Source: a virus. From it: 64,000 nucleotides of DNA. The position numbers were made by a program, and so were the translations under genes. Each line of letters opens with the position of its first letter. The first letter of the stretch is position 1. The notes below the pieces were generated by a model that was given only the letters and a program-made list of their open reading frames with translations, was not told the DNA's origin and did no database searches. The stretch covers positions 1-64,000 of the IMG/VR virus record IMGVR_UViG_3300017667_000009; one strand, given 5' to 3'. Positions 2,465 to 55,733 of the stretch are shown here, one piece after another.

Positions 2465-2527
2465 TAATGAGTTATGAAACACAACAATAAACATCTGTTA
2501 TAGTCTGGTGCGGCAATTAAAACGAAA

Positions 2528-2800: not shown

Positions 2801-2861
2801 CGCTTGCATATAATGAACAAGAGTTTATTCAGTTGCGATTGTTATCACTAAACTAAATTAT

Positions 2862-3948: not shown

Positions 3949-4078
3949 TCGCGCGGTGGCGGCATTGCCACCAATGATTCTGGTGTATGACCAGTGGCGG
4001 CCTTATACTAAACTACATGAGCCACACGGCCTTGCGCAGTTTGGCGGTGTGAGCGGTGAAACACTAAACTTAATAACT
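3949..4078 (+). repeat. GC-rich spacer with nested inverted repeats
   Basis: 130 nt between two island genes, clearly richer in GC than its neighbours. It contains the hairpin GGTGGC-ggcatt-GCCACC (starting about 3956) and a second imperfect one, CCACAC...GTGTG, around 4022-4052. The frame is open here, but the upstream extension of the next gene looks non-coding. Similar hairpin spacers follow at 6077, 6433 and 6838. Confidence 0.45.
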
Positions 4079-14661: not shown

Positions 14662-15058
14662 CAAGAGTTAGTTGAAAGGTTGCTGAATCATTTACCATGT
14701 TTAATAAGTACTTCCCAGGGTATAGCGTTAGCTGCTTAGTTATGTTATCCCAATCCAAAAGCCCCAACGTCATAAAAAAATTGGCTGGCATTGTAAGGAT
14801 AGAAATGGCTGAAATAGTAAAGCTGAAAACGCCTTTTATGGCATTGCCTTGGTTTATAGATGTAATTGTCTTGTTGCCCCCTATTGAAGTTATAGTTCCT
14901 GATGAGTTTGCTCCCACAAAAACAACTTCCGATAGAAGTTCCCAATCCAATACAATACCAGCCCCGGTTACGTCCACTGTCTTCCTTTTTACACTAGGCG
15001 TAATTACCTTTTGAAGTGGGGGTTTTCTTAGTAAGTATCGTTTGCTCGGGGTTGGCAT
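14648..15058 (-). CDS. small spike-associated hypothetical protein
   Basis: 136 aa. Basic N-terminus (MPTPSKRYLLRKPPLQKVITPSVKRK) then a beta-rich domain (LDWELLSEVVFVGANSSG ... GKYLLNMVNDSATFQLTLDGPQ). Overlaps the spike gene start, so probably coupled. It may be an adaptor between fibre and spike, by place only. Confidence 0.55.
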   Translation of the reverse strand: MPTPSKRYLLRKPPLQKVITPSVKRKTVDVTGAGIVLDWELLSEVVFVGANSSGTITSIGGNKTITSINQGNAIKGVFSFTISAISILTMPANFFMTLGLLDWDNITKQLTLYPGKYLLNMVNDSATFQLTLDGPQ

Positions 15059-30926: not shown

Positions 30927-31113
30927 TGGAAAAAATAGAAAATCCGTAAACCACTGGCATCACTCAATGGTACTTCAAAAAATGCTTTTATAATTACTCC
31001 CCGCTATCGCTCCTTTAATTTTGTGTTACGGTCATATCTCCCGTTGTTTTTGCCAAATTCGGTTGACAATCCTATCACCCTTTCGGGCGCTGCTCTTCAT
31101 AAAAAAAATTTCG

Positions 31114-31194
31114 TAGCGAGTGCGGGACTTGAACCCGCGAGGCTTAACGCAGAGGGTTATGAGCCCTCCCTGATACCAACTTCAGACAACTCGC
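31114..31194 (-). tRNA. tRNA-Met-type (anticodon CAT), non-canonical
   Basis: Read on the minus strand: acceptor GCGAGT pairs with ACTCGC; D-arm CTGA-agttggta-TCAG with the classic AGxxGGTA loop; anticodon arm GAGGG-CTCATAA-CCCTC (anticodon CAT; three G:C pairs next to the loop as in initiator tRNA); T-arm GCGGG-TTCAAGT-CCCGC. The CCA end is not encoded. Odd points: 13-nt variable region (TGCGTTAAGCCTC) instead of about 5, and an extra base between the acceptor and D stems. Followed by TTTTTTTT. Could decode Met, or Ile if the C is lysidinylated. The small open frame across it is spurious. Confidence 0.78.
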
Positions 31195-31224
31195 GATTTA
31201 ATATTTACTAGACTTAGGATAAAA

Positions 31225-31349: not shown

Positions 31350-31859
31350 ATGGTAACTAAAACTCTTCCAGATGTGCAGGAATCGCATATTGTGCGAGAG
31401 GAATCCCGTCAGCAAATAGCTGATTTCGATAAGTGGCTACTGTCTCAGCCTAACGTCAAACTTGGAAACAATACACTCACACCCATCAAACACTTGTTTG
31501 GCTCAGGTACTTATGTAAGGGAAATGTTCGTTCCGAAAGGGGTGACATTCACCGGCAAGATCCACAACATGGATCACATAATCATAATTGCCAAAGGAAC
31601 AATAAAGGTCTTTAACGAAACCATGTCCGAAGTTCAAACACTTACTGGGCCATGTATTTTTGAGCAAGAGAGGGGGATAAAAAGAGTTGGCCTAGCCGTT
31701 ACAGATGTTTACTGGTACAACATTCACTCCAACCCATCGGAAACGAGAGATATTGACAAAATTGAACACCGGCTCGTTTCAAAAACTTTCGAAGAGTATA
31801 AAAGATTACCACTCACTAAAAAACTTTTAAAATTATGGCGTTTGTTGCAGCGGCATTAG
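31350..31859 (+). CDS. cupin-like virion-operon protein
   Basis: 169 aa. Central cupin-type beta-barrel (about 55-120): REMFVPKGVTFTGKIHNMDHIIIIAKGTIKVFNETMSEVQTLTGPCIFEQERG, matching the cupin 1 pattern with H-x(4)-H-like residues (KIHNMDH) that may bind metal. The C-terminus is basic and helical (LTKKLLKLWRLLQRH). First gene of the ejection-protein operon. Cupin-like proteins recur next to internal virion genes in podoviruses. Overlaps the next gene by 25 nt. Confidence 0.7.
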   Translation: MVTKTLPDVQESHIVREESRQQIADFDKWLLSQPNVKLGNNTLTPIKHLFGSGTYVREMFVPKGVTFTGKIHNMDHIIIIAKGTIKVFNETMSEVQTLTGPCIFEQERGIKRVGLAVTDVYWYNIHSNPSETRDIDKIEHRLVSKTFEEYKRLPLTKKLLKLWRLLQRH

Positions 31860-32542
31860 CGATAGGGGCTGGCACAGCCCTAGTAGGCGGCATAGGTAAA
31901 AAAATTGCGGCAGATAATCTTGCCAATAAGCAAAGAAATGCGCTCAACAATCTAAAAGAAAGCCAGTTTATTTCACCGGCTTTGCTAGAGGCTTTGGGTA
32001 ACTCACAAAAACGAAAAGATGCCACTATGTACGCAGGTCAAGATATTGACCAGGCCAACATTCAACGTAGCGCGGGCAGCGCATTTGCCAATCTTTCCAG
32101 AGGCACTACCTCATCTACTAATTTGGTGAATGGAGCCATGGCAATTCAAGGTCAGCAAAACATAGCTAATCAAGGCATTCAAAGAAACTTAGCTCAGTTT
32201 AAAGACCGGGCAAACCAAGACTACACCCAATTACTGCTTCAAAAGGGCAACGTCCAAATGGCAAACCGTAGGCAATACGAAGCCTCAAAATCGGCACTTC
32301 AGGGCGCCATTATGCAAAACGAAGCCCAAGGAGATAACGCCTTATGGAATGCGTTTAGCCAAATAGGGGGGGCAGCAGCCGCAGCGGGATCGGCAGGTTT
32401 ATTTAAGGGCAGTAGAGGACTAAGCGATGCAAATGGAATGGGGAGCGGGTCAGCAATGCCCACAGCAAATCAAGCACTCGGTAGCAACGGATGGAGAAAT
32501 GGATTTTTTCAAAAAGGAAATTATAATCCATTCGAAGAATGA
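31835..32542 (+). CDS. internal virion / ejection protein (small)
   Basis: 235 aa. Gly/Ala-rich hydrophobic N-terminus (FVAAALAIGAGTALVGGIG) and a second Ala/Gly patch (IGGAAAAAGSAGLFKG) flanking a long Gln/Asn/Ala helical region (NIQRSAGSAFANLSRGTTSS...). This resembles T7 gp14/P22 gp7-type ejection proteins that insert into the host membrane. Shares ATGA with the next gene. Probably packaged in the head and released to form a DNA channel. Confidence 0.65.
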   Translation: MAFVAAALAIGAGTALVGGIGKKIAADNLANKQRNALNNLKESQFISPALLEALGNSQKRKDATMYAGQDIDQANIQRSAGSAFANLSRGTTSSTNLVNGAMAIQGQQNIANQGIQRNLAQFKDRANQDYTQLLLQKGNVQMANRRQYEASKSALQGAIMQNEAQGDNALWNAFSQIGGAAAAAGSAGLFKGSRGLSDANGMGSGSAMPTANQALGSNGWRNGFFQKGNYNPFEE

Positions 32543-34335
32543 ACGCAGGAGAAGCAGTCTTTCAAGGTCGCGAAGGCACTGGGTTAGCCCAAATCCTACA
32601 TTGGCAAGACGCCAAGTCCATTAATGTTCCGTGGCAGCAAATTGCCATGCAGAAAGCCAATGAAAGAAGGTTGGCTCTTGAGCAACAAAAAATGCGTGAT
32701 GATTATGTGGACAAGCTTAAAACCATGAAGCACGAGGGGCGAGATTACTTTGCTGAAGAGGGAACTGCCGACATTCAAAACTATTTAGCCAATTATTCAA
32801 CAGCTCTAGGCCAATCTAACGACATTAACTCCGCAGGCAAGGCCACGGTTGATCAACTCAATGAAATTCAACAAAACCAGGCTAAGCAAAAAGCTTCCGT
32901 AGAACTTGAAAAACAAGTTGAGCAATCGATAAAAGCCGACCCTTTTGCAGACGATGAATTTGCTAGTACAAAAATTAAAGAGTACAACTATCCCATAAGC
33001 AAGAAGACAGCAGACCTCAATATGGAGGGGCTTAACAACTTAGTTGGAAGTCCGCGCGTTTTCGATAAATCTAAATATGTAGAGGCCTTTGTAAAACCGA
33101 TTAAGGAAATGGCCGCCACACAAAACTACCAGGGCCTAATGAATACCCCTCTAGGTCAGTATGTGGTTATGGAAGGTAATAAGGCTCGATTCGGGACTAT
33201 AAAAGACGGAAAAGCCGTTGCTGAAATTCCCGAAGGACTGATTGATGTGGCTCTAAATGAAAGGTATTCAGACAGGATTCGCTTTGACCTAGCAAAACAG
33301 CAAATTCAACAAGGTTACACCGATAAAAACGGAAACAGAATACCTCCAGACCCAACAGTTAATGAAAAACTAGAGGGTGATTATGGTGACATACTTCAGA
33401 GGTTTAATGAAATACGCTACGACAAGCAATACGCTCCAATGGTTCGTGATCAGGTGAGAAAAGACCTTTCCGCATTTAACCAAATCACAGAAAGAGACGC
33501 TATTTCAGGCAGTATGAAATACCCCTCCGCAAGAAATGGTTACGGAAACCAAAACACCGCCCCGAAAATAAGCGAAGGCACGGTAACACGAATCTCAAAA
33601 GATGCCAACACAGTCTTCAAAAACAACGGACTGGTAGCGGTAGAGGGGCCATCGGTCGATCTTCAGGGGATGCTAAAGGCATCCGATCGAAAACTAACAC
33701 TGGCAGACAAAACCGGAGACCTGATCGGGTTCGGCCCAGATCCAAACACCGGGAAGAAATCCATTATCCTTCGTGGTAAGGAGAATAAATTCACTGGTAA
33801 GTATGATATCCAATACGCACCGTTTGATGAGGCCAACCGAAATGCGATCGTAAAATACAACTCAAGTCTTTCCAAGGTTGCAGATGAGTACTCTAAAATG
33901 CCAGAGAAGAACTATCATGTAGACGATGAAAAGATAGACGGGGTAGTTGAGCAGATTAAGACCGCTGTAAAAGCAGGTAAGGACGATAGCGACACCACAA
34001 CTAAATTGCAACAAGTGTTGAGCGAAAACGGAATTAAAGTTCCCGCAGATATGATTGAGGTGGATAAGACCATGTTTGGCAAACTGGGAACCGATGACCT
34101 GAAAATCAATGGCGAGAAGTTTCCTATGAATGAGAAGGGACTAGCAGAGCTGAGGCGCTACATAATTAACAACGACATTAAAGGCGATAATCCTAAAATG
34201 CAGTTCGTGAAGGAGAGAGGGGCTCAAAAGGAACAACCAGCAAACAATCAAGAAGACTTTGATACCCAGTGGTCAAAACTTAAACCTGGAGAAACCCTAG
34301 TGGGTCCAGACGGCAAAACCTACAAGAAAAAATAA
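32539..34335 (+). CDS. internal virion protein
   Basis: 598 aa, charged, helical, without membrane segments. Long coiled-coil near residues 30-170 (QKANERRLALEQQKMRDDYVDKLKT, QNQAKQKASVELEKQVEQ), a more globular centre (about 310-460), and a C-terminal tail with PGETLVGPDGKTYKKK, a short motif seen at the end of ejection proteins. Between a small ejection protein and the giant polyvalent protein, it most likely makes part of the internal core. Not recognised in detail. Confidence 0.6.
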   Translation: MNAGEAVFQGREGTGLAQILHWQDAKSINVPWQQIAMQKANERRLALEQQKMRDDYVDKLKTMKHEGRDYFAEEGTADIQNYLANYSTALGQSNDINSAGKATVDQLNEIQQNQAKQKASVELEKQVEQSIKADPFADDEFASTKIKEYNYPISKKTADLNMEGLNNLVGSPRVFDKSKYVEAFVKPIKEMAATQNYQGLMNTPLGQYVVMEGNKARFGTIKDGKAVAEIPEGLIDVALNERYSDRIRFDLAKQQIQQGYTDKNGNRIPPDPTVNEKLEGDYGDILQRFNEIRYDKQYAPMVRDQVRKDLSAFNQITERDAISGSMKYPSARNGYGNQNTAPKISEGTVTRISKDANTVFKNNGLVAVEGPSVDLQGMLKASDRKLTLADKTGDLIGFGPDPNTGKKSIILRGKENKFTGKYDIQYAPFDEANRNAIVKYNSSLSKVADEYSKMPEKNYHVDDEKIDGVVEQIKTAVKAGKDDSDTTTKLQQVLSENGIKVPADMIEVDKTMFGKLGTDDLKINGEKFPMNEKGLAELRRYIINNDIKGDNPKMQFVKERGAQKEQPANNQEDFDTQWSKLKPGETLVGPDGKTYKKK

Positions 34336-37300
34336 TGGGCAAAAAACTCAAATGGACTCCACCGGCCGATGCAGTCGCAGTTGAGGATAATCCAGTTAAA
34401 TGGACGCCTCCTCAAGATGCTGAGCCTGTAATGGCCAATGGCCTCACCGAAGAACAAGATAAGCAGAAGTCGCTCGCGGAGTTAACCACACCCAAAAAAA
34501 CAGGCCGCGAAGCCGAGTTAGAAAGTGCCTCCGCCTTTGTAAAGCCTTTTGTAGACTTTGGTAAAAAGGCATGGTCAGCCCTTACCGACATGCTGCCAAG
34601 CGGGGTAGCCGCGGGCGAAGCGGGTATGATGCGCTCTAAAAACGCATTCGAAGATAAAATTGTAAACGAAGCCTACCCTTCAACCTCAACACCAGCCGGG
34701 CCAGTGGCGCCATTTGTTACGGACGAAATGCGCAAAGCGGCCATTGAAAACTACTCTAAAAAAGTAGGCGCAGACTCATTTCAAAAAGAAAAGCAAGGTT
34801 TTGAAGGTGCCATTGATACCCGAAAACTAGGCTTGTTAGATTACTCCCGTCAGCAAGACAAAGAATCCGCAGAAAACACAAAAGGCGTAATTCAAGACAC
34901 GAAGGATATCAAAGATATTTCGACCGCTGCATCTTACGTGGCGGGCGCAATGGGTAATGTCATCGGTCTGGCGCCAGCAATGGTAGTTCCTATATTTCCC
35001 TATCTTATGGAAAAGGGAGAAGCGTACAAAGGTGGATTGTCAGAAATCGAAAAAGCCACTGGTAAATCGGAAGAGCAAATCCTGAAAGAAGACCTCGACA
35101 AAACAGCCAGAGACAATTCAGATATAAGCGGTGCTGTTAATACCGCCCTGGAAGGACTGGGTACTCTTTCTGTATTCGGAAAGTTCATACCAAAATCTCT
35201 CTCTGTAAAACTCATTACCAAAATATTTAAAAGCCGGTTTGGTGGAATTACAGCTGGGGCAATTGGTGAAGGTGGAACGGAAGCAATACAGGCGCTAAAT
35301 ACCAAACTAGCCGCTAAGATGTCAACCGGTAAGTACAATGATATTTTTGAGGCCGCTAATGATTTGACCGATCAGGAAATTGAAGAGATAAAGCAAGAAG
35401 GATTTGCAGGTGCCGTAGGTGGAGGAGGAATGTCTGCAACATCGCAGTTAATTAGTAAAAACGAAAATGAACCGAGTATTGAACCAACAACTCAGGAAGC
35501 GCCTAGTAACCCTGTTCAACGCCCTGAAGAAGCGGCCCAACCAACAGTTGTTCAACCAGTACAACCAAGTGCTCAAGAAGTTGCAAAACCAGTAGAAAAT
35601 ATTAATTTAGCACCCGATGGAAAAGAAAATAAAGTTGACCCCGAAGCACGAGGAGCACAACAAGAAATCACTGGAATCAGTCAAGAAGATGCCGAAAATG
35701 TCACCCGAGGAGTTCAAGAAGCAAGCCCAACGACTGAAGGCGCACAGAGAAGCGAACGGCAACTAAAAAAAGATCAAGATCAGGAGCTTGAGGCCTACGC
35801 CAAGAAAACCGGAACTTTCATTGAAGATCCTAAAGAAGCGTTTGGTGAAAAACTTGCCGGTGGTGCCGAGCAAGATGTTTACCTAAGCAAAAATGGCGAT
35901 AAAGTCATAAAGGTAAACGGCCTCACAAATCACGGTGGATGGGCAGACTTTTGGGATAGGCTTACACTTCAAAAAGAACTTTTCCCCAGCACTGCATATA
36001 ATTTAATTGGCTTTACAAAATCAGGTGGTAGGCTGTCTGCTATCTCAGAGCAAAACCGAATAATTGGTACCGAAGTACCCCGTCAGGAATTAATTCAAAA
36101 CCTTGCCGAAAAAGGATTTTATCAAATCCACCCAGAAGGCTCACCCGGTCAGAATCAATTCTACAATCCGGAGTCAGGTGTAAGGCTTAGCGATGTTCAT
36201 AGCGAAAACGTACTGAAAGACGCTGACGGAAACATTCAGTACATCGATCCTATGCTCGACCGCGAAAATCCTTTCGTGGATGAAGAAAGCCAAAAGTATT
36301 TCAACGAGCAGAAGGCTAAATACGCAGAAGAAATAAAACCGCAAAGCCCCTCCGCGATAGAAGGGAAAAAACCAATCTCTACAACCGATGGCAAAGTCAA
36401 CCAAGGGGGGCAAGGGCGGCAAGAAGGGCTGCTAACTCCACAAGAAAAGGGAGAGGTTAAAAAAACCTCTCCTGTTTCTAATTTAGTCACCGAAGGTATT
36501 GACGACCTAAAGGAAATTGCAAAGGCAGAAAAAGCTACCCCACTCACCGATGAGCAGGAGAAGCAAGCTATTGAAATTGCCAAAAAGTACAATAACGAAG
36601 TAAAAAATCCTTCCAAGACTGGTAAGGAAGTGGTCATAGCTAATTCTTTCGAAGAAAGTATAAATATTGGCAAATACGGAGACAAAAACGCCATCCGTCC
36701 GGGTATGGCTAAATCCTACAAGATCAGCAAAAGCGGAACGCCAATAGACAAAATTGCTCAAAAGGCTAGTCATTCCTTTGATGGCTCCGAAACATCTATT
36801 TCCCCTGATGATGTATGGCAATTTATGGTGGACCACAACAGTGGACCTAATACAATCTACACTCCCGCAGGAAACCCAGTACTAAAAGACCTATCAGATC
36901 AATTCACCAAAATAGCCGGCAAGGGGATTAATCGAAAAACACTTAAAGCTTTCTTGTCTAATATGGCCGAGAAGTACGGTTCTATTGACAGCGTTGGGCG
37001 TTTTGTGGATAAATATTACGTGGATGGCGTATTGGATGTTGAAAAAGTAAAAAAAGACATTGATAATGATCCTGATTTCCAAGAAAATAACCAACTTAGC
37101 GATTACGAATTTCAACTTTTAACAGAAGATATTTATGGACAACAAGAGCAAGGCGGAGAATTACAGCCAATTCCTGGTAACCTCGATCAACAGGGCGGCA
37201 GACAAGAGAGCAAGACTGGCACAGAAGGAGGAGCGATTCAGGCAGAGTTTGGGGATCAGACTACAAGTGCCGAAGAGCGAGTCGCAGAAATAACTTCTCA

Positions 37301-40300
37301 GCCACTCACGCACGTTCCCGGCCTAAATATGGGCAAGGGGCTTGTCTCGGGCACATACCTAAGCACCGAAAAAGATAACAGGTACGAAGGCACTCCGCAG
37401 AAGGCAACCGTCAAAATAAAGAAGCCATTTGTATTTAAGGATGAGAATGCAATCATTCCGCTACGAAACAAAATCCTTCAAGAGAACAAAGATAAATTTA
37501 CGGCAGACGATCTCGAGAATCCGTTTGGCGAACTCGAATCGATAGATGACCTTAATGATGCCGGTATAGATAAGCTGGCCGAAATGGTACGTGAGCGTTT
37601 ACGTACCGAAGGTTTTGATAGCGTTTACCTCCCCTCTACCGAAACTCAGGAAGGTGAACTAATCGTGTTCGATCGTGAAAACGTAGACATTGAAGCCGGC
37701 TTGCAGAAAGTAGAAGAAGGCTCCCAAGAATTACTTGGCCCATACCAGTTAGAAGCCCTGCAACGGATAAATAAAGCTCAGGGAGACTTACTGGCAGCCG
37801 AAAAAGCGTACAAAGCAAAAAAAGATACCCTCGCAAAGTCAATTACCGAAGATCAAATTGATATATTCGGTAACCGTAATGGCGATGAGGGGAAATTGTT
37901 CCAACAGAGCGCAGCAGACCGTGATCAAGTCAAAAAACAACTAGACGAGCTTCAGCGCAGAGTAGACAAAGCAAGGCAAGAACTAGAGTCCGCCAAAAGC
38001 AGTTTAAAGAAAGCAATCGAGGCCGATAAAAATAGCTTATTCAAAGATGAAAAAACCAAAAAAACAACCGAAGGAGTACCCTACCTCTCAAACCCTTCCG
38101 CCAACTACGGCACAGGTAATTCCTCCGTACAACGGAAAGATTCACCCAGTAACGGTATCGGTTCTTCAATAAAGGCCGTTTGGAATAAGTTCAAAAACAT
38201 TCAGTTTACCGGCACTACTCGGGTAACATCCGCAGCAGACGTAGCCGACATAATGAGGCTACTCGAAGATAAATCGGTAGAGCACTCATTTGCCGTTCAC
38301 GTAGACCAAGACGGCAATAGCCACATTCAGTTTCTTTCCCTTGGCGTAACCGCGGGAACGGTAGTAGATGCTAAATTAGTTTTAGCAGGAGTAACCAAAT
38401 TCAATTCAAAGAAGGTGTACCTGGTGCATAATCATCCTTCTGGAAATCTTGACCCTAGCCAGTCAGATATTGTCCTTACCAACAAGATAAAAAGCGGACT
38501 TCAAGACATTGGCGTAGATTCCGAGCACCTTATCATGGATACCTACAAAAAAGAGTACACTATCATAAACGGAAAAAACTCAAAACAGTATAAGCGGAAA
38601 GATCGTCAGGATGGAGTGCCATTGGAAACTCATATAATGGATGAGCAAACTATCTTAAAAGTCCCCCAAACACAAATTAAAGACTCAAGAGATATAGCCA
38701 CGTTTGTCCAGCAGCTTCAGTACACCGCCATGCCAAAGAATGCGGTAATACTACTTAATATAAAAAATCAAATAGTTGGCAACTACGTGTTTCAAGATGG
38801 CATTGACCTAAAACAATTAACTCAATGGATAGGCGAATCCGCCACCGTTATGTCAGTTGTTTTTTACGGTAATCAAAATAACACTCTTCAGGTAAATCAA
38901 GCCACGAGCACATTAAAAAACCTAGATGTTAATGTGTTGGATTATATCGTAACCGGAAGCAACAGCCAAAGCATACAAGGGTATTATAAATCCATGAGTG
39001 ACGGAACGCTCCGTGAAGATCAGGAAAAATACGGCACCAACAATGTAAACAACCCAGACCGCAAGGCATCTATTAAAAACGCCTTACTCAAAATTGCCAA
39101 GGGATTAATTCAGTCTAAGCAAGCAACTCCAGATAACGTAATCGAAAAATTACGCGAATACCTTAAAGGAAAAAGATTTGGCGTGACTGCTAAAGAAATA
39201 GATCAGTCTATAAAATCATTTAATAGATACGATAAGGAAAAACTCACCGAATTTGCAGAGTTCGTAAAAAAGGAAGAGGGAGATCAAGTCACTGATAAAA
39301 AAAGCGTTCAAAAAGTAATGCAAGATGTGTTTGGGCTATCCGAAGAAGAATCCCAGTCCACCGCTGAGGTTTACGATGCCGTTCTTTCCGCTATTGCCAA
39401 TAGACAAGGCACAACGCTCGAAGAGCAATATCAAAAGATTAAATTCAGTAAAGCCGATAAGGAGTTAGCTGATGCATTAGCGCAAAACCCAGCCGTTAAA
39501 TACCAGATTTCACTCTTCCACTCAAGCCCATATCTGTTTGATAAATTTCGCTTGAGTGAAGTTGGCAAAGGTGTTGGTCAACAAAAACTAGGATACGGAC
39601 TGTATTTCTTAGATCAGGAAGGGCCAACAAGAGGTTATGCAACCTATCCATTTGTTTCAAAAATACTCCCTCAATTTTTCAAAAAATACAAAGCCGGAAA
39701 GATAGATGTTGCCGAACGATTAGCCTATGACTTTGGAGGTGATCTTGCGATATATAAAAATCAGCTGGCAAAAGAGGGTAAAAAACTTTTTGGGGCGAGT
39801 CAGGCAACGAACGAGTTATCACAACTGGAATCACTTGAGCAAGAAATAAATAAAAGAGGTTTAGGCACCTTCACATACAAAGCCAGCGCCCACCAAGGCA
39901 AGTCTCCCGATCAATATGACTACTTGGATGGGAATACCCCGTTAACTGCAAAGCAAGTCGAAAAACTTGCCAACTCCGGTATTTCAGTAGAAGGCATGAC
40001 TGGCCAGCAGGCGTATGATGCAATCGCGAAGGAAAGAGGAGGCCAGAAACAAGCGTCTGAGTTCTTATTAGAAAATGGAATTGATGGCATAACCTATTCC
40101 GATGAGGCTATGTTTGTAGACAAATCTCGCGCTAAAGGAAGCAAGGTTTATGTGGTGTTCGATGATAATGCGGTTTCCATAGAGGAGACAATAAAGTTTC
40201 AGCGTGACGCAGAGAGGGTCAAAGGAGCCATGCGCGACATGATGAACGGACAGGCAATTATTTACGCGCTAACCAATCCAGATGTCTCCACACCGGTTCA

Positions 40301-43300
40301 TGAACTCGCGCACATATACGAGAATTATTTAAGCTCAGCAGAACGTAAGGATATTTTAGAATGGTCAGGTCAAAAAGAATGGAACGTTGAGACAAGCGAA
40401 AACTTTGCCCGTGGTTTCGAGCAGTATTTGAAAGATGGACAGGCGCCTAATTCCAAATTACAACAGGCATTCGAAAACTTCAAAAAGTGGCTAAATGATA
40501 TCTACCAAAATATCAATCCGTCTAAGATAGAATTAAACGCAAAGATGAAGGGAATCTATGCGCAAATGACGGATGTAAAAGCGTCTGAAAATAAAAGTCA
40601 GAAGCAAAAACCAGCACCCAAATCCGCAGAAAGTAATCAATCCATAGAATCCTCTAAAAAAGAACGGACTATTGCCAAGCGGTACCTGTCAGATGAATCC
40701 GTATCTGATGAAGTTAAACAAGGTCTTTCCCAAGAGGGCCGTTACTACATTCCCACTACTGATTTAACTCGCCAGGCCGAAGCCGATGCATACATTGAAG
40801 AAAAAGGCATTGATCAGTCCATTGCAGATATTACAGATCCTAACAACGGATTGTCTGATCAAAATAGAATATTTATTGGTAAGACTATTTACGCTCAGCT
40901 CAAGCAGGAGGTAAAAACATCCGAAACACCCAACGCGGTAAGGGATAAAATTAACCGGTTAGTAGAGGAAATCGCCAAACTAGGCACTAGGGCTGGCCAA
41001 ACAGTGCAGGCCTTTGCCAATATGTTTGCCTCCGATGCCGAACAAGTAGCTTACTCTCTCACAAAAGAGTACAACAAAAGCCGTAATGAGGCCCTAGACA
41101 TCAACAAGGCCAATGTAGATGATCTCATTTCTTTAATCCTAGATAAAGCCCCAAAAGAGGCGCTGCAGTCACTATTGAGCGATCCCCGAATTAAAGCAAT
41201 CCTAGACGAGTCAAAAAAATCAGAAAACCTCCGTCAGTCCAAGCGTAAACAGTTCACTCAAAAAGTACTTAATAAACTTGACGAAATTGAAAAGCAGATT
41301 GATGATAGCATTAAAAGTGGCCGGGTTAATTTAGACTTTTCTATGGGCCTACTGCCGCTGACTTACAAGGCAGCGATTAATACTATTCGGTTAGCGGTGA
41401 AAGCCGGAGATAGCCTAGCTGATGCCGTTGAGAAGGCAATAAACGAGGTAAAGCAAAACAATAAAGATTGGGATGAGTCCGACTTCCGCAAGCAATTTGC
41501 ATCTGATATTAAAGAGGAGCGCAAGGCCGATCGCAAAACCCTGTTAGAATACCTTCAGGGAGAGAGTTTTAAAGACCTGGCCATTGGGCATTACAAAACC
41601 CTAAATTCTAAAAAGCAAGAACTTCAGGAGGCGTTAGAGAAAGATTTAGAGCCCAGTGAAGCCAAGCGATTAATGGACACGCTCGAAAAAATAGTAGGCG
41701 AAAAGCGCCAGAAGCTAATTGAGCAAAAATTTGGATCTAAACTATCACTTCCAAAAAAGAAGAGATTGGTTAAGCAAATGGCCGACAAGATCAAAGAATT
41801 TACAGATTTAGGCGTTCTTTCCGATAAGAAATTAAGAGATGCTTATCTGGAATCCATCGAGCTCCCCGCTATCAGCGATGAGCAAAGTAAAAAACTTGAA
41901 GAGTTAGTGGAAAGAGCCGAAGCAAAGCCAATGGGCTGGCAGCGTTTCGAAGCCGTGCAGGACATTATCAGGTACCATCAACAAGTTACCCCTTTAAGTT
42001 GGGGCTCAGTGGTTGAAAGCATCTGGTATGCCAATATGCTTTCCAGTCTTTCTACCCACAAGGTAAACTTCGAGGCCAACGCAGTTCGCACCATGGCAGA
42101 AACATTTGTTTCCTCCGTGCAGTCTGTAATTGAGTATAAGAATCCAAAGGTGGCATTCAAAAACATCTCTTTCCAACTCAAAGGTTTGGTAGAGGGGTAT
42201 AATAGAAATTTGAAGGAGGCGGCTAACATTTTAAAGAATGGCTACTACCCTGTAAAGTCAAACAAGTTCGAAGGCTTTGCGGGGGTAAAGACGTCACAGG
42301 CATCTGTTTTGGAGGTGCTTAATAAAAAAAATCCTCTCAGCTGGTGGAGGTACGTTGGCAGGTTACTAACCGCTACTGATATTCTCTTTTATGGAGGGTT
42401 GAAACACATGCGGGCGCACCAGCTTGCTTTCCGAGAAGCGTATAGCAAAAATCAAAATACGTTCGATAAAACCACGTTAGCGAAAGCAAACGAGTTAATA
42501 GGCAGGACCTCCATTCAATTAAATGCAGCCCAAACCCGTGCAGAGTCCGAAGGATTAACTGGCAAGCAGAAGAACAGAAGGATATATGAGATCATGGAAC
42601 AGTCATGGTCCGAACTTAACCGTGAAGACGCGACTAGCTTTGCGGTCAAAGGAACGTATAACCATGAGCCAGAAGGCGTAATGGGGTTATTGTCGAGCAG
42701 TATTAGCACCCTCACCACCTCAGTCCCTATCGTTAAAACAGTAGTCCCTTTTACACGGGTAATTTCTAACGTAGTTAATGATTACCTGGACTACACCCCT
42801 TGGGGACTTGTGCGCGCAGCAAAAGGAGGTATGGGAATACCAACCAAGCCAAGCTATTCTAAGTTTACCGCAGAGGAGTTACTGAGGGAGAAGATCAAAG
42901 CCATATCGGGCTCAATGGCAATGGTTACTCTGTACGCCATGAGCCAAAGTGAAGATGATGACGAGCCCTTGCTCGAGATCACCGCAGACGGCACCGGTAG
43001 TTTTAAAAACAATTTTGAGCTGGCTAGAACTGGCTGGAAAGAGTACACCGCTAAGATAAAAGGCACTGATATTCGTTTCGATTATCGCAATACTCAATTA
43101 GCCATTCCTTTTGCTGTTATTGGTTACATCAACGATTCCAGGAAGTACAAGAAAGATGAGATGAACGATACCCAAATCGGACTTATCGTTTCAGGAACAT
43201 TCCACTTTATTTCAGATCTATCTTTCCTTTCCGGAATGTCAGACTTCTTTCAAATACTTAGCGATGATAAAAACTTTGGAGACAAGATCACCAAGTTTGC

Positions 43301-43838
43301 GGGCCGCACGATAAAAACGGGGTTGGTTCCCAATGCATTCACCCAGGTAAGCCGAAGCATTCAGGAGATCACCAATACCCCAATGAAAAAGGGGGATAGC
43401 TTCTACGCTCAGTTGTTCCGCGACTTCCCGGCCATGCGAGACAACTTTGATACCATGTATAATACCCTGGGCGAACCGATTGTCACCGAAACTCTATACA
43501 AGTTCAACCCTCTCAAAATGTCTACAATGGCAGATGAGAAGGAAAAGGATAGCTACAAATTATGGGAGCTTATTTCCAGCACAGGAGCTTACATCGGCAC
43601 CCCAAGCAAGTCCACTAGAATCTACGACTCATTAACCGGTGTAGATAGAGCCCTAACCCCAGAAGAGTATAACATATACGCTCTGCAGGCAGCCAAATAC
43701 ACCAAAGAGATGCTATTGATTGACTACGATGATCTAGTAACAGAAACCGATAAAAGGCTGATCAAAGATCGTATCTACCAAATCAAAGAGATGGCCAGAG
43801 AGAGAGCTAAAGGGGAATTGTTTGAGTCCATGTATTAA
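34335..43838 (+). CDS. giant polyvalent virion protein (kinase-like, ART, JAB, zincin domains)
   Basis: 3,167 aa, start overlapping the previous stop (TAATG). Regions visible by motif: KWTPP repeats at the N-terminus; hydrophobic Gly-rich segment (about 200-235); kinase-like fold (about 505-650: GGAEQDVYLSKNGDKVIKV, LSDVHSENVLKDADG, IDPM); first ADP-ribosyltransferase-like region (about 985-1115: GLVSGTYLST ... GFDSVYLPS); RadC/JAB metalloprotease-like domain (about 1285-1420, HNHPSGNLDPSQSD); second ART-like (about 1720-1945: LFHSSPYLFDKF, GYGLYFLD, GIDGITYSD); zincin HELAH (about 1987); then ~1,150 residues of helical packing domains. Domain mix is that of polyvalent proteins delivered with phage or plasmid DNA. 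Probably ejected to act on host targets. Confidence 0.8.
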   Translation: MGKKLKWTPPADAVAVEDNPVKWTPPQDAEPVMANGLTEEQDKQKSLAELTTPKKTGREAELESASAFVKPFVDFGKKAWSALTDMLPSGVAAGEAGMMRSKNAFEDKIVNEAYPSTSTPAGPVAPFVTDEMRKAAIENYSKKVGADSFQKEKQGFEGAIDTRKLGLLDYSRQQDKESAENTKGVIQDTKDIKDISTAASYVAGAMGNVIGLAPAMVVPIFPYLMEKGEAYKGGLSEIEKATGKSEEQILKEDLDKTARDNSDISGAVNTALEGLGTLSVFGKFIPKSLSVKLITKIFKSRFGGITAGAIGEGGTEAIQALNTKLAAKMSTGKYNDIFEAANDLTDQEIEEIKQEGFAGAVGGGGMSATSQLISKNENEPSIEPTTQEAPSNPVQRPEEAAQPTVVQPVQPSAQEVAKPVENINLAPDGKENKVDPEARGAQQEITGISQEDAENVTRGVQEASPTTEGAQRSERQLKKDQDQELEAYAKKTGTFIEDPKEAFGEKLAGGAEQDVYLSKNGDKVIKVNGLTNHGGWADFWDRLTLQKELFPSTAYNLIGFTKSGGRLSAISEQNRIIGTEVPRQELIQNLAEKGFYQIHPEGSPGQNQFYNPESGVRLSDVHSENVLKDADGNIQYIDPMLDRENPFVDEESQKYFNEQKAKYAEEIKPQSPSAIEGKKPISTTDGKVNQGGQGRQEGLLTPQEKGEVKKTSPVSNLVTEGIDDLKEIAKAEKATPLTDEQEKQAIEIAKKYNNEVKNPSKTGKEVVIANSFEESINIGKYGDKNAIRPGMAKSYKISKSGTPIDKIAQKASHSFDGSETSISPDDVWQFMVDHNSGPNTIYTPAGNPVLKDLSDQFTKIAGKGINRKTLKAFLSNMAEKYGSIDSVGRFVDKYYVDGVLDVEKVKKDIDNDPDFQENNQLSDYEFQLLTEDIYGQQEQGGELQPIPGNLDQQGGRQESKTGTEGGAIQAEFGDQTTSAEERVAEITSQPLTHVPGLNMGKGLVSGTYLSTEKDNRYEGTPQKATVKIKKPFVFKDENAIIPLRNKILQENKDKFTADDLENPFGELESIDDLNDAGIDKLAEMVRERLRTEGFDSVYLPSTETQEGELIVFDRENVDIEAGLQKVEEGSQELLGPYQLEALQRINKAQGDLLAAEKAYKAKKDTLAKSITEDQIDIFGNRNGDEGKLFQQSAADRDQVKKQLDELQRRVDKARQELESAKSSLKKAIEADKNSLFKDEKTKKTTEGVPYLSNPSANYGTGNSSVQRKDSPSNGIGSSIKAVWNKFKNIQFTGTTRVTSAADVADIMRLLEDKSVEHSFAVHVDQDGNSHIQFLSLGVTAGTVVDAKLVLAGVTKFNSKKVYLVHNHPSGNLDPSQSDIVLTNKIKSGLQDIGVDSEHLIMDTYKKEYTIINGKNSKQYKRKDRQDGVPLETHIMDEQTILKVPQTQIKDSRDIATFVQQLQYTAMPKNAVILLNIKNQIVGNYVFQDGIDLKQLTQWIGESATVMSVVFYGNQNNTLQVNQATSTLKNLDVNVLDYIVTGSNSQSIQGYYKSMSDGTLREDQEKYGTNNVNNPDRKASIKNALLKIAKGLIQSKQATPDNVIEKLREYLKGKRFGVTAKEIDQSIKSFNRYDKEKLTEFAEFVKKEEGDQVTDKKSVQKVMQDVFGLSEEESQSTAEVYDAVLSAIANRQGTTLEEQYQKIKFSKADKELADALAQNPAVKYQISLFHSSPYLFDKFRLSEVGKGVGQQKLGYGLYFLDQEGPTRGYATYPFVSKILPQFFKKYKAGKIDVAERLAYDFGGDLAIYKNQLAKEGKKLFGASQATNELSQLESLEQEINKRGLGTFTYKASAHQGKSPDQYDYLDGNTPLTAKQVEKLANSGISVEGMTGQQAYDAIAKERGGQKQASEFLLENGIDGITYSDEAMFVDKSRAKGSKVYVVFDDNAVSIEETIKFQRDAERVKGAMRDMMNGQAIIYALTNPDVSTPVHELAHIYENYLSSAERKDILEWSGQKEWNVETSENFARGFEQYLKDGQAPNSKLQQAFENFKKWLNDIYQNINPSKIELNAKMKGIYAQMTDVKASENKSQKQKPAPKSAESNQSIESSKKERTIAKRYLSDESVSDEVKQGLSQEGRYYIPTTDLTRQAEADAYIEEKGIDQSIADITDPNNGLSDQNRIFIGKTIYAQLKQEVKTSETPNAVRDKINRLVEEIAKLGTRAGQTVQAFANMFASDAEQVAYSLTKEYNKSRNEALDINKANVDDLISLILDKAPKEALQSLLSDPRIKAILDESKKSENLRQSKRKQFTQKVLNKLDEIEKQIDDSIKSGRVNLDFSMGLLPLTYKAAINTIRLAVKAGDSLADAVEKAINEVKQNNKDWDESDFRKQFASDIKEERKADRKTLLEYLQGESFKDLAIGHYKTLNSKKQELQEALEKDLEPSEAKRLMDTLEKIVGEKRQKLIEQKFGSKLSLPKKKRLVKQMADKIKEFTDLGVLSDKKLRDAYLESIELPAISDEQSKKLEELVERAEAKPMGWQRFEAVQDIIRYHQQVTPLSWGSVVESIWYANMLSSLSTHKVNFEANAVRTMAETFVSSVQSVIEYKNPKVAFKNISFQLKGLVEGYNRNLKEAANILKNGYYPVKSNKFEGFAGVKTSQASVLEVLNKKNPLSWWRYVGRLLTATDILFYGGLKHMRAHQLAFREAYSKNQNTFDKTTLAKANELIGRTSIQLNAAQTRAESEGLTGKQKNRRIYEIMEQSWSELNREDATSFAVKGTYNHEPEGVMGLLSSSISTLTTSVPIVKTVVPFTRVISNVVNDYLDYTPWGLVRAAKGGMGIPTKPSYSKFTAEELLREKIKAISGSMAMVTLYAMSQSEDDDEPLLEITADGTGSFKNNFELARTGWKEYTAKIKGTDIRFDYRNTQLAIPFAVIGYINDSRKYKKDEMNDTQIGLIVSGTFHFISDLSFLSGMSDFFQILSDDKNFGDKITKFAGRTIKTGLVPNAFTQVSRSIQEITNTPMKKGDSFYAQLFRDFPAMRDNFDTMYNTLGEPIVTETLYKFNPLKMSTMADEKEKDSYKLWELISSTGAYIGTPSKSTRIYDSLTGVDRALTPEEYNIYALQAAKYTKEMLLIDYDDLVTETDKRLIKDRIYQIKEMARERAKGELFESMY

Positions 43839-43866
43839 AAAGGCTACCCTCAAATAGCCTTTTTTG
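43836..43866. terminator. terminator after the polyvalent gene
   Basis: AAAAAGGCTA-ccctcaaa-TAGCCTTTTT, stem of 5 GC-containing pairs flanked by A/T runs, so it can work in both directions. Its first bases overlap the stop codon region of the giant gene. Confidence 0.8.
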
Positions 43867-51298: not shown

Positions 51299-53329
51299 AT
51301 GAAAACGACATTTAGTAAATCAATTCGAGGAGGTTACAAAGCCGAGACAATGACAGAGACGGACGCCAACGGCAACGCATGGCAAATTTCAACATTTAAG
51401 AGATCAAATGGCCTAGTATGTTGTTCAGCTATTCAGGGACAAGACACCGGCAAAGGGAATTTTACCTATGAGATGTTTGGAGCTAAAAGGTTGGAACTTG
51501 CCCAGGAAAAGACCAACGGCACAGAGGCAGCAATAAAAAGGGTACACGCGGCCGGACTAATTGAATTTAACAGGATACAGGCAGAAGCCCCCCAGATAAC
51601 CGCGCCCGCGTATGTTGTGGGGATAGGCCAAATTATTTTTACCGATAGTTGCGGAAATTGGGAAGAGAAAAAACGCGTAATTTATGAAGTAAAAAGCCCC
51701 GGCCATTTCAAAACCGTGACTTTAGACGGCAAAGAGTTAAGACATGACGACCGAGTAAGACCATACAGTGAAAAATTCGGAATTGGAGTATACTACAACG
51801 AAGGCGAAACGCTACCAATTGAAGAGGTTAACAACCTAGTAAACCAAGCCCGCCACGCCACCGAGGAAAGGAACCAAGCCGAAGAGCAAGCCCGCACGGC
51901 CGCAGCAATAGAGAGAAATCAGAAAATCGCTGCAGGCATTAAAATACTCCCAGCTATACCAGAGGGAGTAAAATCTGTAATAATAGGCGAAAAATTTTCG
52001 ACAGGGTACGACCCATACGCAGATTATAACACTCACCCAGAGACAACCGAGGAAATAATTTATTTACAATGGAGCAGCCACACTAGGGATATTTTCAGCG
52101 AAATGAGAAAGGCAGCAGACACAAACGAGAAAACCGCGCACCTAGGAACGGGAAAAGGAATTTTTGAAACCTTCCAAACAGACGAAGACGGCCGATATAG
52201 CGAACGCGGGGAAGTATTCACAACAGAAGCCGAAGCCATAGAGCTAGTAACAGCCAAGAACAGCGAGAGCCAGCCAAAAGGCTACAAATGGTCATACAAA
52301 GTCGAAGACATAGAGCACCGCGAAAAATATTCGATGGGTTCAGGTTATTATTTGAAAAGCGGAGAATGGAAAGTAAGAAAAATAAATATAGGCGAAAACA
52401 GCCTAGCCACTTTGCAAATTGCGGCCGCGGAAAATAGGTTTTTTTGCAACTCCCAACCCGAGGCAACCAAGGAGACACCGAAATTTGAAGCACAGGAAGT
52501 ACAGGCCGGAACCGTTCAAATAGTTGACTACTCGGAAAAGGCGATCGCAGTAATCGGAGACACCAAGCCGATAAAAGACAAATTAAAAAGCCTAGGAGGC
52601 AAATTTAATTTTCGCCTAAGTTGTGGAGCGGGGTGGATATTCAAAAAATCCGACCTGGAAAGACTGCAAAAGGCACTAACACCACAAGAAGAAGGAGACA
52701 CGCCAAATAGACTCGAGACAGAGGGAAACCTAATAGCCGCACAGCACAGAGGAACATTGCTAAGGCATCCAGAACTAGAGCCAGCGCACCCGCTTAATAT
52801 TTGCGACCCAGAGGGAGGCCAATATAAAGAAGCCTTAAAAGAGCACGAGAACAGGCCAAGCAAAACACCAGAGGAGGCAAAGCAGCGGTTAAGCGAAGAA
52901 GTTAAAAAGATGGAGGAATTTTTAGGACTTAATACGCCCGACCCCGAAACAATAGAAGCCAAAGCCCAGAAACAGGAAGCGATACAGGCAGACGGTTTAT
53001 CAATTGAAGAGCTAACCCCTTGCAATTGTTTTCTAAATGCTGATAACTGCATTTGTGAAAAGCCAATACATGAAGCAATAAAAGCGACAACCCGTAAAAC
53101 TATAAACGTGACTCCACAGGTTGCAGCATCTTGGAGCCCACACGGAAACGCAGAATATAAAAAAGCAATTGAAGACAAGGACGAGGAAAAAATTACCATG
53201 ATCGTAACACGCAGAGCCATAGGCACCAGTTCAGACGGGTTTTTTAGGGTATCCGGACCAGAGCCAAGGAGCAGCAAAGCAGGGAGGACTAATGTGAGCC
53301 TACCAGCCCCCCAGATGTTTTTATTTTAA
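51299..53329 (+). CDS. mobile-element multidomain protein with GGKFN...GWIF motif
   Basis: 676 aa. N-terminal ~120 residues form an unfamiliar alpha/beta domain. The middle has Glu-rich helical stretches and YGSGYYLKSG-like strands. A small domain near 405-460 reads VQIVDYSEKAIAVIGDTKPIKDKLKSLGGKFNFRLSCGAGWIFKKSDLERLQKAL; the 'GDT...LK.LGGKFN..L..G.GWIF' motif occurs in Bacteroidota conjugative elements and in large eukaryotic DNA viruses, usually beside DNA-processing domains. Ends with a Cys cluster (CNCFLNADNCICE, about 605-617). Function unknown; probably acts on DNA early in infection. Confidence 0.6.
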   Translation: MKTTFSKSIRGGYKAETMTETDANGNAWQISTFKRSNGLVCCSAIQGQDTGKGNFTYEMFGAKRLELAQEKTNGTEAAIKRVHAAGLIEFNRIQAEAPQITAPAYVVGIGQIIFTDSCGNWEEKKRVIYEVKSPGHFKTVTLDGKELRHDDRVRPYSEKFGIGVYYNEGETLPIEEVNNLVNQARHATEERNQAEEQARTAAAIERNQKIAAGIKILPAIPEGVKSVIIGEKFSTGYDPYADYNTHPETTEEIIYLQWSSHTRDIFSEMRKAADTNEKTAHLGTGKGIFETFQTDEDGRYSERGEVFTTEAEAIELVTAKNSESQPKGYKWSYKVEDIEHREKYSMGSGYYLKSGEWKVRKINIGENSLATLQIAAAENRFFCNSQPEATKETPKFEAQEVQAGTVQIVDYSEKAIAVIGDTKPIKDKLKSLGGKFNFRLSCGAGWIFKKSDLERLQKALTPQEEGDTPNRLETEGNLIAAQHRGTLLRHPELEPAHPLNICDPEGGQYKEALKEHENRPSKTPEEAKQRLSEEVKKMEEFLGLNTPDPETIEAKAQKQEAIQADGLSIEELTPCNCFLNADNCICEKPIHEAIKATTRKTINVTPQVAASWSPHGNAEYKKAIEDKDEEKITMIVTRRAIGTSSDGFFRVSGPEPRSSKAGRTNVSLPAPQMFLF

Positions 53330-54128: not shown

Positions 54129-55733
54129 ATGTTCGGTCCTGATTTTTACCCCACACCACAGCCCGTAATTGATCAATTACTTTCGAGCATTGACCTACAC
54201 GGCAAAATAGTACTAGAGCCTAGCTGCGGAAGCGGAAATTTAGTTAAAGCAATCCAACAGGCAGGAGCCAAGGAGGTTTTAGGTTGCGAGAACGAACCGC
54301 AATTAGTTAAAATTGCGCAAAGTTATTGCAAGATAGTTGAGAGGAATTTTTTAGACCTCACAAGCGATAAGGTAAGCCACATTGATGCAATACTTATGAA
54401 TCCGCCCTTCAGTAATGGAGCTCAGCACATTCTACACGCGTACAAGATCGCGCCAGACGGATGTCAGGTAATTGCCTTATGTAATCTTGAGACAATCAAA
54501 AACCCCTACACAAAAACAAGGGAGGAATTAAAAACCTTAGTGGATACATACGGGCAATTTTCGGACCTCGGAGAATGTTTTACAACGGCAGAAAGAAAAA
54601 CAAACGTACAAGTTGCATTGATCCGACTACAAAAGCCAGTCAACAACTACAAGGCAGAGTTTGAAGGTTTCTTTTTAGATGAGGACCCAGAAGAAGGCCA
54701 GGCCAGCGGATTGATGAGATACAACGAGGTCAGGGACTTAGTTAACCGTTACGTTGAGAGCGTAAAAATTTACGATCAGCAACTTGAGACGGCAGTAAAA
54801 TTAAACAGCTTGCAAAAAGATTACTTCGATACCTCCAGCGCATACAACGACAAAAAACAAATTTCGATAACTATTAACCAAGGAGGCGTTGCGGTTGCAA
54901 GAAATGAGTTTAAAAAGCGGATGCAGAGAAGCGGATGGAAATGGATATTTGATAAAATGGATTTAACCAAGACCGCTACAAAAGGACTCCGAGAGGATAT
55001 AAACAAGTTTGTTGAAAAGCAGCAGGAAATTCCTTTCACCATGAGAAACATTTACCACATGCTAGACATGGTAAACCAAACAACAGGCCAGCGCATGGAT
55101 AAAGCTATTTTAGAAGTATTCGACAAGGTAACAAGACACAGCCACGACAACGAGTACCGGGTAGAGGGATGGAAAACAAACAGCCACTATCTGCTAACAA
55201 AAAGATTTATTGCGCCAAGCTACTGCAAAGAAGAAATGGAAGACCTAGTAAAAGCCCTTTGCTACATTACCGGAAAGAACTACGATAATTTTATGACGCT
55301 CGAGCACCGCATGAATAACAAATACACGCTAGTCGATGCCGAGGGGAATTTAATAATTGACGACACGGATCGTTGGTACAAATACTATCTTTGGAGTGGT
55401 TACGAAATTGATCAATATGGATACGGCAAAGAAGCGCTTGAAAAACACCCTGGAAGCAAGATCGAAAAGTTAGAATGGGATTACGGCAAGTGGTTCGACT
55501 GGGGATTTTTCACCGTCAGACATTACAAAAAAGGAACGTATCACTTTGAATTTAAGTCCGAGGACGTTTGGGCAAACTTCAACCAGAGAGTAGCTAAAAT
55601 CAAAGGATATCCACTACCAGAAAAGAAAACGCAAACCGCATACCAGAAACGCCAGACCTATACCAGAGACGCAAAGCCAGCATATAAACCAACAGCACAA
55701 AAACCTACTATCTTAGCAACCTTTAACGTTTAG
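54129..55733 (+). CDS. DNA methyltransferase fused to DUF4942
   Basis: 534 aa. N-terminal SAM-dependent methyltransferase: FYPTPQPVIDQLL (FxPTP), LEPSCGSGNL (motif I), CENEPQLVKIA, LMNPPFS (catalytic NPPF, N6-adenine type). C-terminal DUF4942 region from about 200: RDLVNRYVESVKIYDQQLETAVKLNSLQ ... EVFDKVTRHSHDNEYRVEGWKTNSHYLLTKRFIAP. This fusion is typical of Bacteroidota phages and mobile elements. Probably methylates adenine to protect phage DNA from host restriction or to mark it; target sequence unknown. No cognate endonuclease seen, so it is an orphan enzyme. Confidence 0.88.
   Translation: MFGPDFYPTPQPVIDQLLSSIDLHGKIVLEPSCGSGNLVKAIQQAGAKEVLGCENEPQLVKIAQSYCKIVERNFLDLTSDKVSHIDAILMNPPFSNGAQHILHAYKIAPDGCQVIALCNLETIKNPYTKTREELKTLVDTYGQFSDLGECFTTAERKTNVQVALIRLQKPVNNYKAEFEGFFLDEDPEEGQASGLMRYNEVRDLVNRYVESVKIYDQQLETAVKLNSLQKDYFDTSSAYNDKKQISITINQGGVAVARNEFKKRMQRSGWKWIFDKMDLTKTATKGLREDINKFVEKQQEIPFTMRNIYHMLDMVNQTTGQRMDKAILEVFDKVTRHSHDNEYRVEGWKTNSHYLLTKRFIAPSYCKEEMEDLVKALCYITGKNYDNFMTLEHRMNNKYTLVDAEGNLIIDDTDRWYKYYLWSGYEIDQYGYGKEALEKHPGSKIEKLEWDYGKWFDWGFFTVRHYKKGTYHFEFKSEDVWANFNQRVAKIKGYPLPEKKTQTAYQKRQTYTRDAKPAYKPTAQKPTILATFNV

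What the first reader, a model, noticed from the sequence alone, without database searches (positions are those of the whole stretch)
34335..43838. 3,167-aa multi-enzyme polyvalent protein in an ejection operon
One reading frame holds motifs for a kinase-like fold (GGAEQDVYLSK, SDVHSENVLKDADG), two ADP-ribosyltransferase-like regions (GLVSGTYLST; LFHSSP...GYGLYFLD), a RadC/JAB domain (HNHPSGNLDPSQSD), a zincin HELAH and long helical packing domains. The genes just before it look like internal virion proteins, so it is probably packaged and injected. Known theme: polyvalent proteins of phages and conjugative elements carry such mixes. Putting a kinase-like and two ART-like folds in one injected phage protein is unusual, and it may be a full host-takeover kit. 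Domain limits are by eye.
Basis: partly seen in the sequence, partly recalled or inferred. Interest (0 to 1): 0.9.

Follow-up and report, generated by a model that had tools for sequence, protein, structure and literature searches.

The report
Phage ejection protein carrying enzyme cargo
One phage gene encodes a giant protein whose tail end belongs to the machinery that pushes DNA into a bacterium and whose front two thirds carry a string of enzymes (kinase, RadC, two ADP-ribosyltransferases, protease); related phages keep the same tail end and swap the enzymes, so the phage's injection machine appears to double as an effector carrier.

Summary
The 3,167-aa ORF is real. Kinase-PolyVal (E 9e-31), RadC (8e-17), a complete zincin (H1989, E1990, H1993, E2022) and an ART-PolyVal-type domain at 1716-1960 are confirmed by profile. 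The first "ART" (about 960-1125) is probable only: a compact ART profile gives 84% against at most 1.2% for shuffles, but its AlphaFold model is uninformative. The new result is the C-terminal core (2440-3160). It is homologous to "internal virion protein D"/gp16 of T7-like phages P-SSP7, Syn5, HTVC011P and ProddE (E 6e-22 to 4e-39), though not detectably to T7 gp16. About 60 distinct virus proteins share it, with N-terminal extensions from about 120 to 3,340 aa and different enzymes; the sister sequence (36% identical) lacks cargo. The gene is last in a fibre / gp14-like / gp15-like / giant operon that recurs in relatives. Best reading: a gp16-like ejection protein with exchangeable N-terminal cargo, entering a (probably Bacteroidota) host with or ahead of the DNA and cut up by its own protease. 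Polyvalent proteins are a known theme, and kinase+ART and kinase+RadC combinations occur elsewhere. Packaging, injection and enzyme activity are inferred.

The parts
31350..31859 (+). short tail-fibre/adhesin-like protein (169 aa), first gene of the operon
   Evidence: PHROG 12032 short tail fibre E 1e-27; homologous gene in the same place in 15 relatives
31835..32542 (+). gp14-like small ejection protein (235 aa), N-terminal hydrophobic segment 1-21
   Evidence: iterated profile finds the matching gene upstream of the giant gene in about 10 relatives and, with a model built without them, upstream of the RadC-bearing giants L292 (5e-18) and L293 (6e-14); the gp14 role is by position and size, no sequence link to T7 gp14
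32539..34335 (+). gp15-like protein (598 aa); ATGA overlap with the gene before, TAATG overlap with the giant gene
   Evidence: position, size and overlaps; no sequence homologue found, so the gp15 role is by synteny only
34335..43838 (+). giant polyvalent ejection protein, 3,167 aa
34335..35744 (+). N-terminal region 1-470, no homologue; one hydrophobic segment at residues 202-221
35766..36254 (+). Kinase-PolyVal domain (478-640), conserved residues present
   Evidence: Pfam PF18762 E 9e-31; alignment with relatives
37212..37709 (+). probable compact ART-PolyVal-like domain (about 960-1125)
   Evidence: hhalign 83.8% against shuffle maximum 1.2%; AlphaFold pLDDT mostly below 50, inconclusive
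37740..38045 (+). long helical spacer (about 1136-1237)
   Evidence: AlphaFold helices
38172..38564 (+). RadC/JAMM domain (1280-1410), metal-site residues complete
   Evidence: Pfam PF04002 E 8e-17; Foldseek 2qlc
38652..39014 (+). degenerate second RadC-like domain without the HxHPSG site (about 1440-1560); forms one cassette with RadC
   Evidence: profile-profile 92% to RadC; travels with RadC in relatives L208-L229; AlphaFold JAB-like alpha/beta domain at pLDDT about 90
39480..40214 (+). ART domain of the ART-PolyVal type (1716-1960), H1729 and Y1757 conserved
40212..40604 (+). zincin-like metallopeptidase (about 1960-2090), H1989 E1990 H1993 E2022
   Evidence: PHROG 9880 E 1e-19; 15 homologues; invariant site
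40602..41654 (+). helical domain H1 (2090-2440), N-terminal part of the conserved ejection core
   Evidence: found in 37 virus proteins; AlphaFold
41652..43814 (+). conserved C-terminal ejection core (2440-3160), gp16/internal virion protein D-like
43837..43864 (+). terminator-like hairpin right after the stop codon
   Evidence: 10-bp stem then T-rich tail; such hits are no more frequent than in shuffles, so position is the argument

Best explanation
The gene encodes the gp16-like (internal virion protein D-like) member of a short-tailed phage's ejection set, extended at the N-terminus by an exchangeable cassette of about 2,000 residues: protein kinase, probable compact ART, RadC with a degenerate RadC partner, second ART, and a zincin protease. 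Shown: the ORF, most domains and their intact sites, the operon position, homology of the C-terminal core to annotated internal virion proteins of T7-like phages, and variation of the extension across relatives. Inferred: several copies are packaged, leave the virion with or ahead of the DNA, and thread partly unfolded through the tail. The C-terminal core helps form the conduit across the inner membrane. The zincin then cuts the cargo free, and the kinase and ARTs modify host proteins in the first minutes of infection. The RadC pair most likely acts on nucleic acid (protecting or repairing the incoming genome), with the degenerate copy as a structural or regulatory partner. Likely host phylum: Bacteroidota.
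For: A core profile built only from giant-protein rows finds exactly one ORF per phage in HTVC011P (8e-39), ProddE (4e-39), Syn5 (9e-24) and P-SSP7 (6e-22) among 398 ORFs, namely the gene annotated internal virion protein (gp16/D). Foldseek of the core model against viral predictions matches internal virion proteins of S-CBP3, S-RIP1, S-CBP2 and EXVC018P as well as proteins annotated ART-PolyVal or LPD (E to 4e-15). The core occurs in about 60 distinct proteins, C-terminal in the large ones, with extensions of about 120-3,340 aa; the sister L093 (support 0.97) has no cargo. Pfam of 22 long extensions gives ART-PolyVal in 6, ddrB-ParB, LPD14, LPD23, GNAT and sigma region 4, none with kinase or RadC. 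Operon order recurs, with a homologous gp14-like gene. The RadC pair is a cassette shared at up to 66% identity with giants that carry no detectable copy of this core yet sit in the same kind of operon. TerL is nearest Flavobacterium and Cellulophaga phages. P-SSP7 loses its inner core on attachment and T7 ejects gp14-16 (PMC8954989).
Against: No sequence or fold link to T7 gp16 itself (no PDB match below E 0.25). The gp15-like gene has no detectable homologue. Nothing here shows that the protein is in virions. At 3,167 aa it is more than twice the reviewed gp16 range of 609-1,337 aa (PMC8954989), although phages with injected polymerases package proteins this big. The first ART is not proven. 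In T7, gp16-N stays in the periplasm, so N-terminal cargo would need release or a different topology to reach the cytoplasm. No enzyme was assayed.
Confidence: 0.74

Rival explanations
1. A virion protein whose enzyme-like domains mainly act inside the phage-producing cell or in the particle (zincin for head maturation, ARTs as structural folds), with no effector role in the next host.
For: It lies among virion genes, and self-cleavage in the virion is equally compatible with the zincin site.
Against: Kinase, RadC and zincin catalytic residues are all kept, and cargo differs between relatives while the core stays, which is expected of effectors rather than of morphogenesis parts.
Confidence: 0.12
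2. A non-virion protein made during infection and used in the infected cell, with the ejection-like core only marking ancestry.
For: No proteomics; the ORF is on the opposite strand from portal and terminase.
Against: Overlapping start with the gp15-like gene in an operon with gp14-like and fibre-like genes; the core is homologous to internal virion proteins.
Confidence: 0.08
3. A conjugative-element polyvalent protein captured by a phage, since RadC was reported only from conjugative elements.
For: Iyer et al. 2017 place RadC, within polyvalent proteins, only in conjugative elements.
Against: The genome has terminase, portal and a fibre gene; RadC giants L292 and L293 lie in the same ejection operon and L050 carries RadC with the phage-type LPD38 and InPase domains. 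RadC is a phage cassette here.
Confidence: 0.03

Closest known systems
Polyvalent proteins (Iyer et al. 2017, PMC5512222)
   Same: Many unrelated enzyme domains in one polypeptide; Kinase-PolyVal, ART-PolyVal-type and zincin domains; encoded near virion genes; protein predicted to be injected and processed by its own zincin
   Different: RadC occurs here in a phage-type protein, against the 2017 statement; the C-terminus is a recognisable internal virion protein core, a link not made in that paper
T7-like internal virion protein D / gp16 (P-SSP7, Syn5, HTVC011P, ProddE)
   Same: Homologous C-terminal core, last gene of the ejection operon, mostly helical
   Different: Extended N-terminally by about 2,000 aa of enzymes; no detectable link to T7 gp16 itself, no transglycosylase domain found
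Kinase-PolyVal giants: Bacteroidales contig JAIRNR010000025 (L146) and IMG/VR 3300021254_000084 (L290)
   Same: Kinase plus 3 ARTs (L146), or kinase then RadC in the same order (L290), in one giant ORF
   Different: Carry PBECR nucleases; no match to the C-terminal core where tested (L290's record)
Phage N4-type virion RNA polymerase and crAss001 cargo proteins
   Same: Very large virion proteins delivered through a short tail, probably partly unfolded (PMC10172136)
   Different: No polymerase here; cargo is protein- and nucleic-acid-modifying enzymes
T4 Alt
   Same: Head-packaged, injected ADP-ribosyltransferase as functional precedent (PMC5512222)
   Different: Alt is a different ART clade and a single-activity protein

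Membership tests
Polyvalent protein | Two or more unrelated enzymatic domains in one polypeptide | tested here: met
   Kinase, RadC, ART, zincin
Polyvalent protein | Encoded by a phage or conjugative element, for phages near virion genes | tested here: met
   terminase, portal and fibre genes in the window; ejection operon
Polyvalent protein | Injected with the DNA | not testable with these tools
   needs virion proteomics or a translocation assay
Kinase-PolyVal | Above the family cut-off and the conserved active-site residues, including Glu before strand 2 and Gln in the last N-lobe strand | tested here: met
   107 bits against 27; all invariant columns of the alignment kept
RadC | JAMM site E..HxH..S..D and JAB fold | tested here: met
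ART-PolyVal (residues 1716-1960) | Above the Pfam cut-off | tested here: not met
   17.4 bits against 31.2; homologous by iterated profile to proteins that do contain ART-PolyVal, so it is an ART-like relative rather than a scoring member
ART fold (residues 960-1125) | Significant profile match or ART fold in a model | tested here: inconclusive
   83.8% profile match over the second half only; low-confidence model
Zincin-like metallopeptidase | HEXXH and a downstream Glu | tested here: met
   H1989, E1990, H1993, E2022 invariant
Internal virion protein D (marine T7-like gp16) | Sequence homology of the core | tested here: met
   E 6e-22 to 4e-39; viral-model fold matches
Internal virion protein D (marine T7-like gp16) | Third gene after gp14- and gp15-like genes | tested here: met
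   order and overlaps in the window and relatives; gp14/gp15 identity itself is by position
T7 gp16 proper | Detectable sequence or structural similarity to T7 gp16 | tested here: not met
   hhalign within shuffle range; no PDB hit

The most novel reading that the evidence does not exclude
The gp16-like ejection core is a general delivery chassis in short-tailed phages. One conserved C-terminal module puts itself through the host envelope and carries whatever N-terminal enzyme cassette the phage has recently acquired, so the ejection conduit and the early-effector load are one molecule, with a toxin-like 'conserved trafficking part plus swapped payload' logic.
Probability: 0.5. Interest if true: 0.75.

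Novelty: new variant of a known kind. Interest (0 to 1): 0.55.

Why it matters
It gives phage polyvalent proteins a concrete physical anchor: a C-terminal core homologous to a known class of ejected virion protein. 'Are polyvalent proteins really injected, and how?' then becomes testable in existing T7-like systems. It also yields a search handle, the core profile, that pulls out early-infection enzyme cassettes regardless of content, and it shows RadC with a degenerate partner as a phage-borne cassette, correcting an earlier generalisation.

Tried and rejected
Direct link to T7 gp16: hhalign of the core profile against the T7 proteins of that region gave nothing above shuffles, and Foldseek against the PDB gave no match. 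ART1 through the ART2 profile: no signal; only the compact ART profile gives one. AlphaFold of ART1 without homologues: uninformative; ART rows forced into that alignment landed on RadC and were left out so as not to bias the model. Kinase relatives in virus and genome contigs by single sequence: none; found instead through the Pfam family in Bacteroidota and Verrucomicrobiota genomes. Close relatives of the whole protein: none in INPHARED. A first RadC/second-copy comparison was contaminated by profile drift and was repeated with strict inclusion. Bacteroidota-type promoter motif: no more frequent than chance. Rfam: only the tRNA. Considered and rejected: a chance long ORF; a conjugative-element origin; uniqueness of kinase+ART.

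Full report
Observation. The window lies in a 68,443-bp IMG/VR virus record. Pfam finds Kinase-PolyVal at 478-640 (E 9e-31) and RadC at 1298-1402 (E 8e-17); PHROG 9880 matches the zincin region 1921-2075 at E 1e-19. ART-PolyVal reaches only E 0.008 at about 1727-1830, but that region aligns through the zincin with giant proteins of other phages at 29-38% identity, and its iterated profile recruits 84 proteins, some of which score as ART-PolyVal in Pfam.

The uncertain first ART. A profile seeded on a compact ART-PolyVal domain of another giant protein (L050) matches residues 1017-1118 at 83.8% probability. The best of 40 shuffles reaches 1.2%, and every other 260-residue segment of the protein is at most 1.5% except the one that contains the second ART (80%). 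The match covers only the back half, and AlphaFold without homologues gives no usable model there. I rate it probable (about 0.7).

RadC is a pair. Directly after RadC lies a second RadC-like domain that lacks the HxHPSG metal site. A strict profile of this copy aligns with the RadC profile at 92% probability, and AlphaFold models both domains at pLDDT around 90. The model's best PDB matches are RadC 2qlc. The JAMM residues of the first copy are invariant. The pair occurs together in giant proteins of other virus contigs, up to 66% identical over RadC, so it behaves as one cassette.

The C-terminal core. Residues 2440-3160 match the last gene of an ejection-type operon in podovirus MW202801 (27%), and through it proteins annotated internal virion protein D/gp16 in marine T7-like phages. 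To remove circularity I built a model only from giant-protein rows. It hits exactly the gp16/D genes of HTVC011P (8e-39), ProddE (4e-39), Syn5 (9e-24) and P-SSP7 (6e-22), plus the corresponding gene of podovirus MW202733 (2e-31), among 398 ORFs. T7 gp16 is not found by sequence, nor does the core model match anything in the PDB. The model does match predicted structures of internal virion proteins of several cyanophages and a pelagiphage, and of proteins named ART-PolyVal or LPD, with E down to 4e-15; rmsd values are large because the matches are long and flexible. In P-SSP7 the gp16 annotation rests on synteny and size, but its inner core is known to leave the capsid on attachment (PMC8954989).

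Cargo varies on a conserved core. A scan of IMG/VR with the core gave 54 loci. With earlier loci, 63 distinct core sequences were compared. The core is C-terminal in the large proteins, and the part before it ranges from about 120 residues (some of these truncated by contig ends) to 3,340. The window's sister sequence, L093 (36% identical, support 0.97), has only 394 residues before the core and no cargo domain in the 22 kb held, nor a kinase in its whole record. In L103 an upstream 2,688-aa ORF carries ART and LPD23, so cargo may sit in a neighbouring gene; in L106, L107 and L099 large upstream ORFs have no recognised domain. Pfam on 22 long extensions finds ART-PolyVal in 6 and single cases of ddrB-ParB, LPD14, LPD23, sigma region 4 and GP88, but no kinase and no RadC.

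Operon. The order fibre-like, gp14-like, gp15-like, giant is tight: ATGA and TAATG overlaps and a hairpin with a T-rich tail right after the giant gene's stop. The gp14-like gene is found by homology in the same position in about ten relatives. With a model built without them, it is also found before the RadC-bearing giants L292 and L293 (5e-18, 6e-14), although those giants have no core detectable with this profile. The gp15-like gene has no homologue I could detect, so its name rests on position and size.

How unusual is the combination? A 4,771-aa protein in a Bacteroidales contig has Kinase-PolyVal, three ART-PolyVal, PBECR nucleases and MuF_C. A 3,895-aa protein in a virus contig has kinase, then RadC, plus two PBECR. 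On the other hand, Iyer et al. [quoted passage not shown] this window, L050, L292 and L293 show phage cases. Kinase-PolyVal was present in 12 of 396 Bacteroidota genomes and in 8 of 195 genomes of the phylum of L170 (a Verrucomicrobium), mostly as small stand-alone genes, in line with that paper.

Host. TerL is nearest Flavobacterium and Cellulophaga podoviruses (27%), the kinase family is mostly from Bacteroidota and Verrucomicrobiota, the highest-identity RadC database hits are Bacteroidota JAB proteins, and a protein near the end of the record has a crassvirus muzzle C-terminal domain. Bacteroidota is the likely host phylum; this is inference.

Mechanism. Best supported: packaged ejection protein with cargo. 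In the T7 model the gp16 N-terminus is periplasmic and the C-terminus reaches the cytoplasm (PMC8954989). If the topology is the same, N-terminal cargo would first be in the periplasm and would have to be released by the zincin or threaded further; if the protein is delivered N-terminus first as proposed for crAss001 gp45 (PMC10172136), the cargo would lead. The sequence cannot decide between these. Targets of the kinase and ARTs are unknown; T4 Alt and the T7 kinase are functional precedents only.

Literature. In the open library held here no paper joins polyvalent proteins with internal virion or ejection proteins; the library lacks most subscription journals, so this is not proof of absence. 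Phage protein databases already name some core-bearing proteins after their polyvalent domains.

Noticed in passing
window 54129-55733 (+): Methyltransferase-like protein with DUF4942, related to the methylase parts of very large phage proteins (PHROG 32703 E 3e-141, PHROG 15406); possibly an anti-restriction gene.
   Followed up: partly
record position 60944-64234 (L004 945-4235, + strand): 1,096-aa protein with a crassvirus muzzle C-terminal domain (E 3e-7), hinting at a distant tie to crAss-like tails.
   Followed up: no
window 3956-4855 (+): DUF5131 protein (E 1e-53) in the phage genome.
   Followed up: no
window 31113-31195 (-): A tRNA-Met gene (CAT) just upstream of the ejection operon on the other strand.
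   Followed up: no
window 51299-53329 (+) and 11170-14664 (-): Large proteins of 676 and 1,164 aa without any Pfam or PHROG match.
   Followed up: no
L005 1685-11926: Core relative with 3,413 aa carrying ARTs, a GP88 domain and a sigma-70 region 4-like domain; a packaged sigma-like factor would be notable.
   Followed up: partly
L103 1-8064 and 8570-12151: Cargo (ART, LPD23, metallopeptidase-like) and core appear as two neighbouring ORFs rather than one fused gene.
   Followed up: partly
L290 7842-19526 (-), IMGVR_UViG_3300021254_000084: 3,895-aa protein with PBECR1, Kinase-PolyVal, PBECR5 and RadC, same kinase-to-RadC order as the window.
   Followed up: partly
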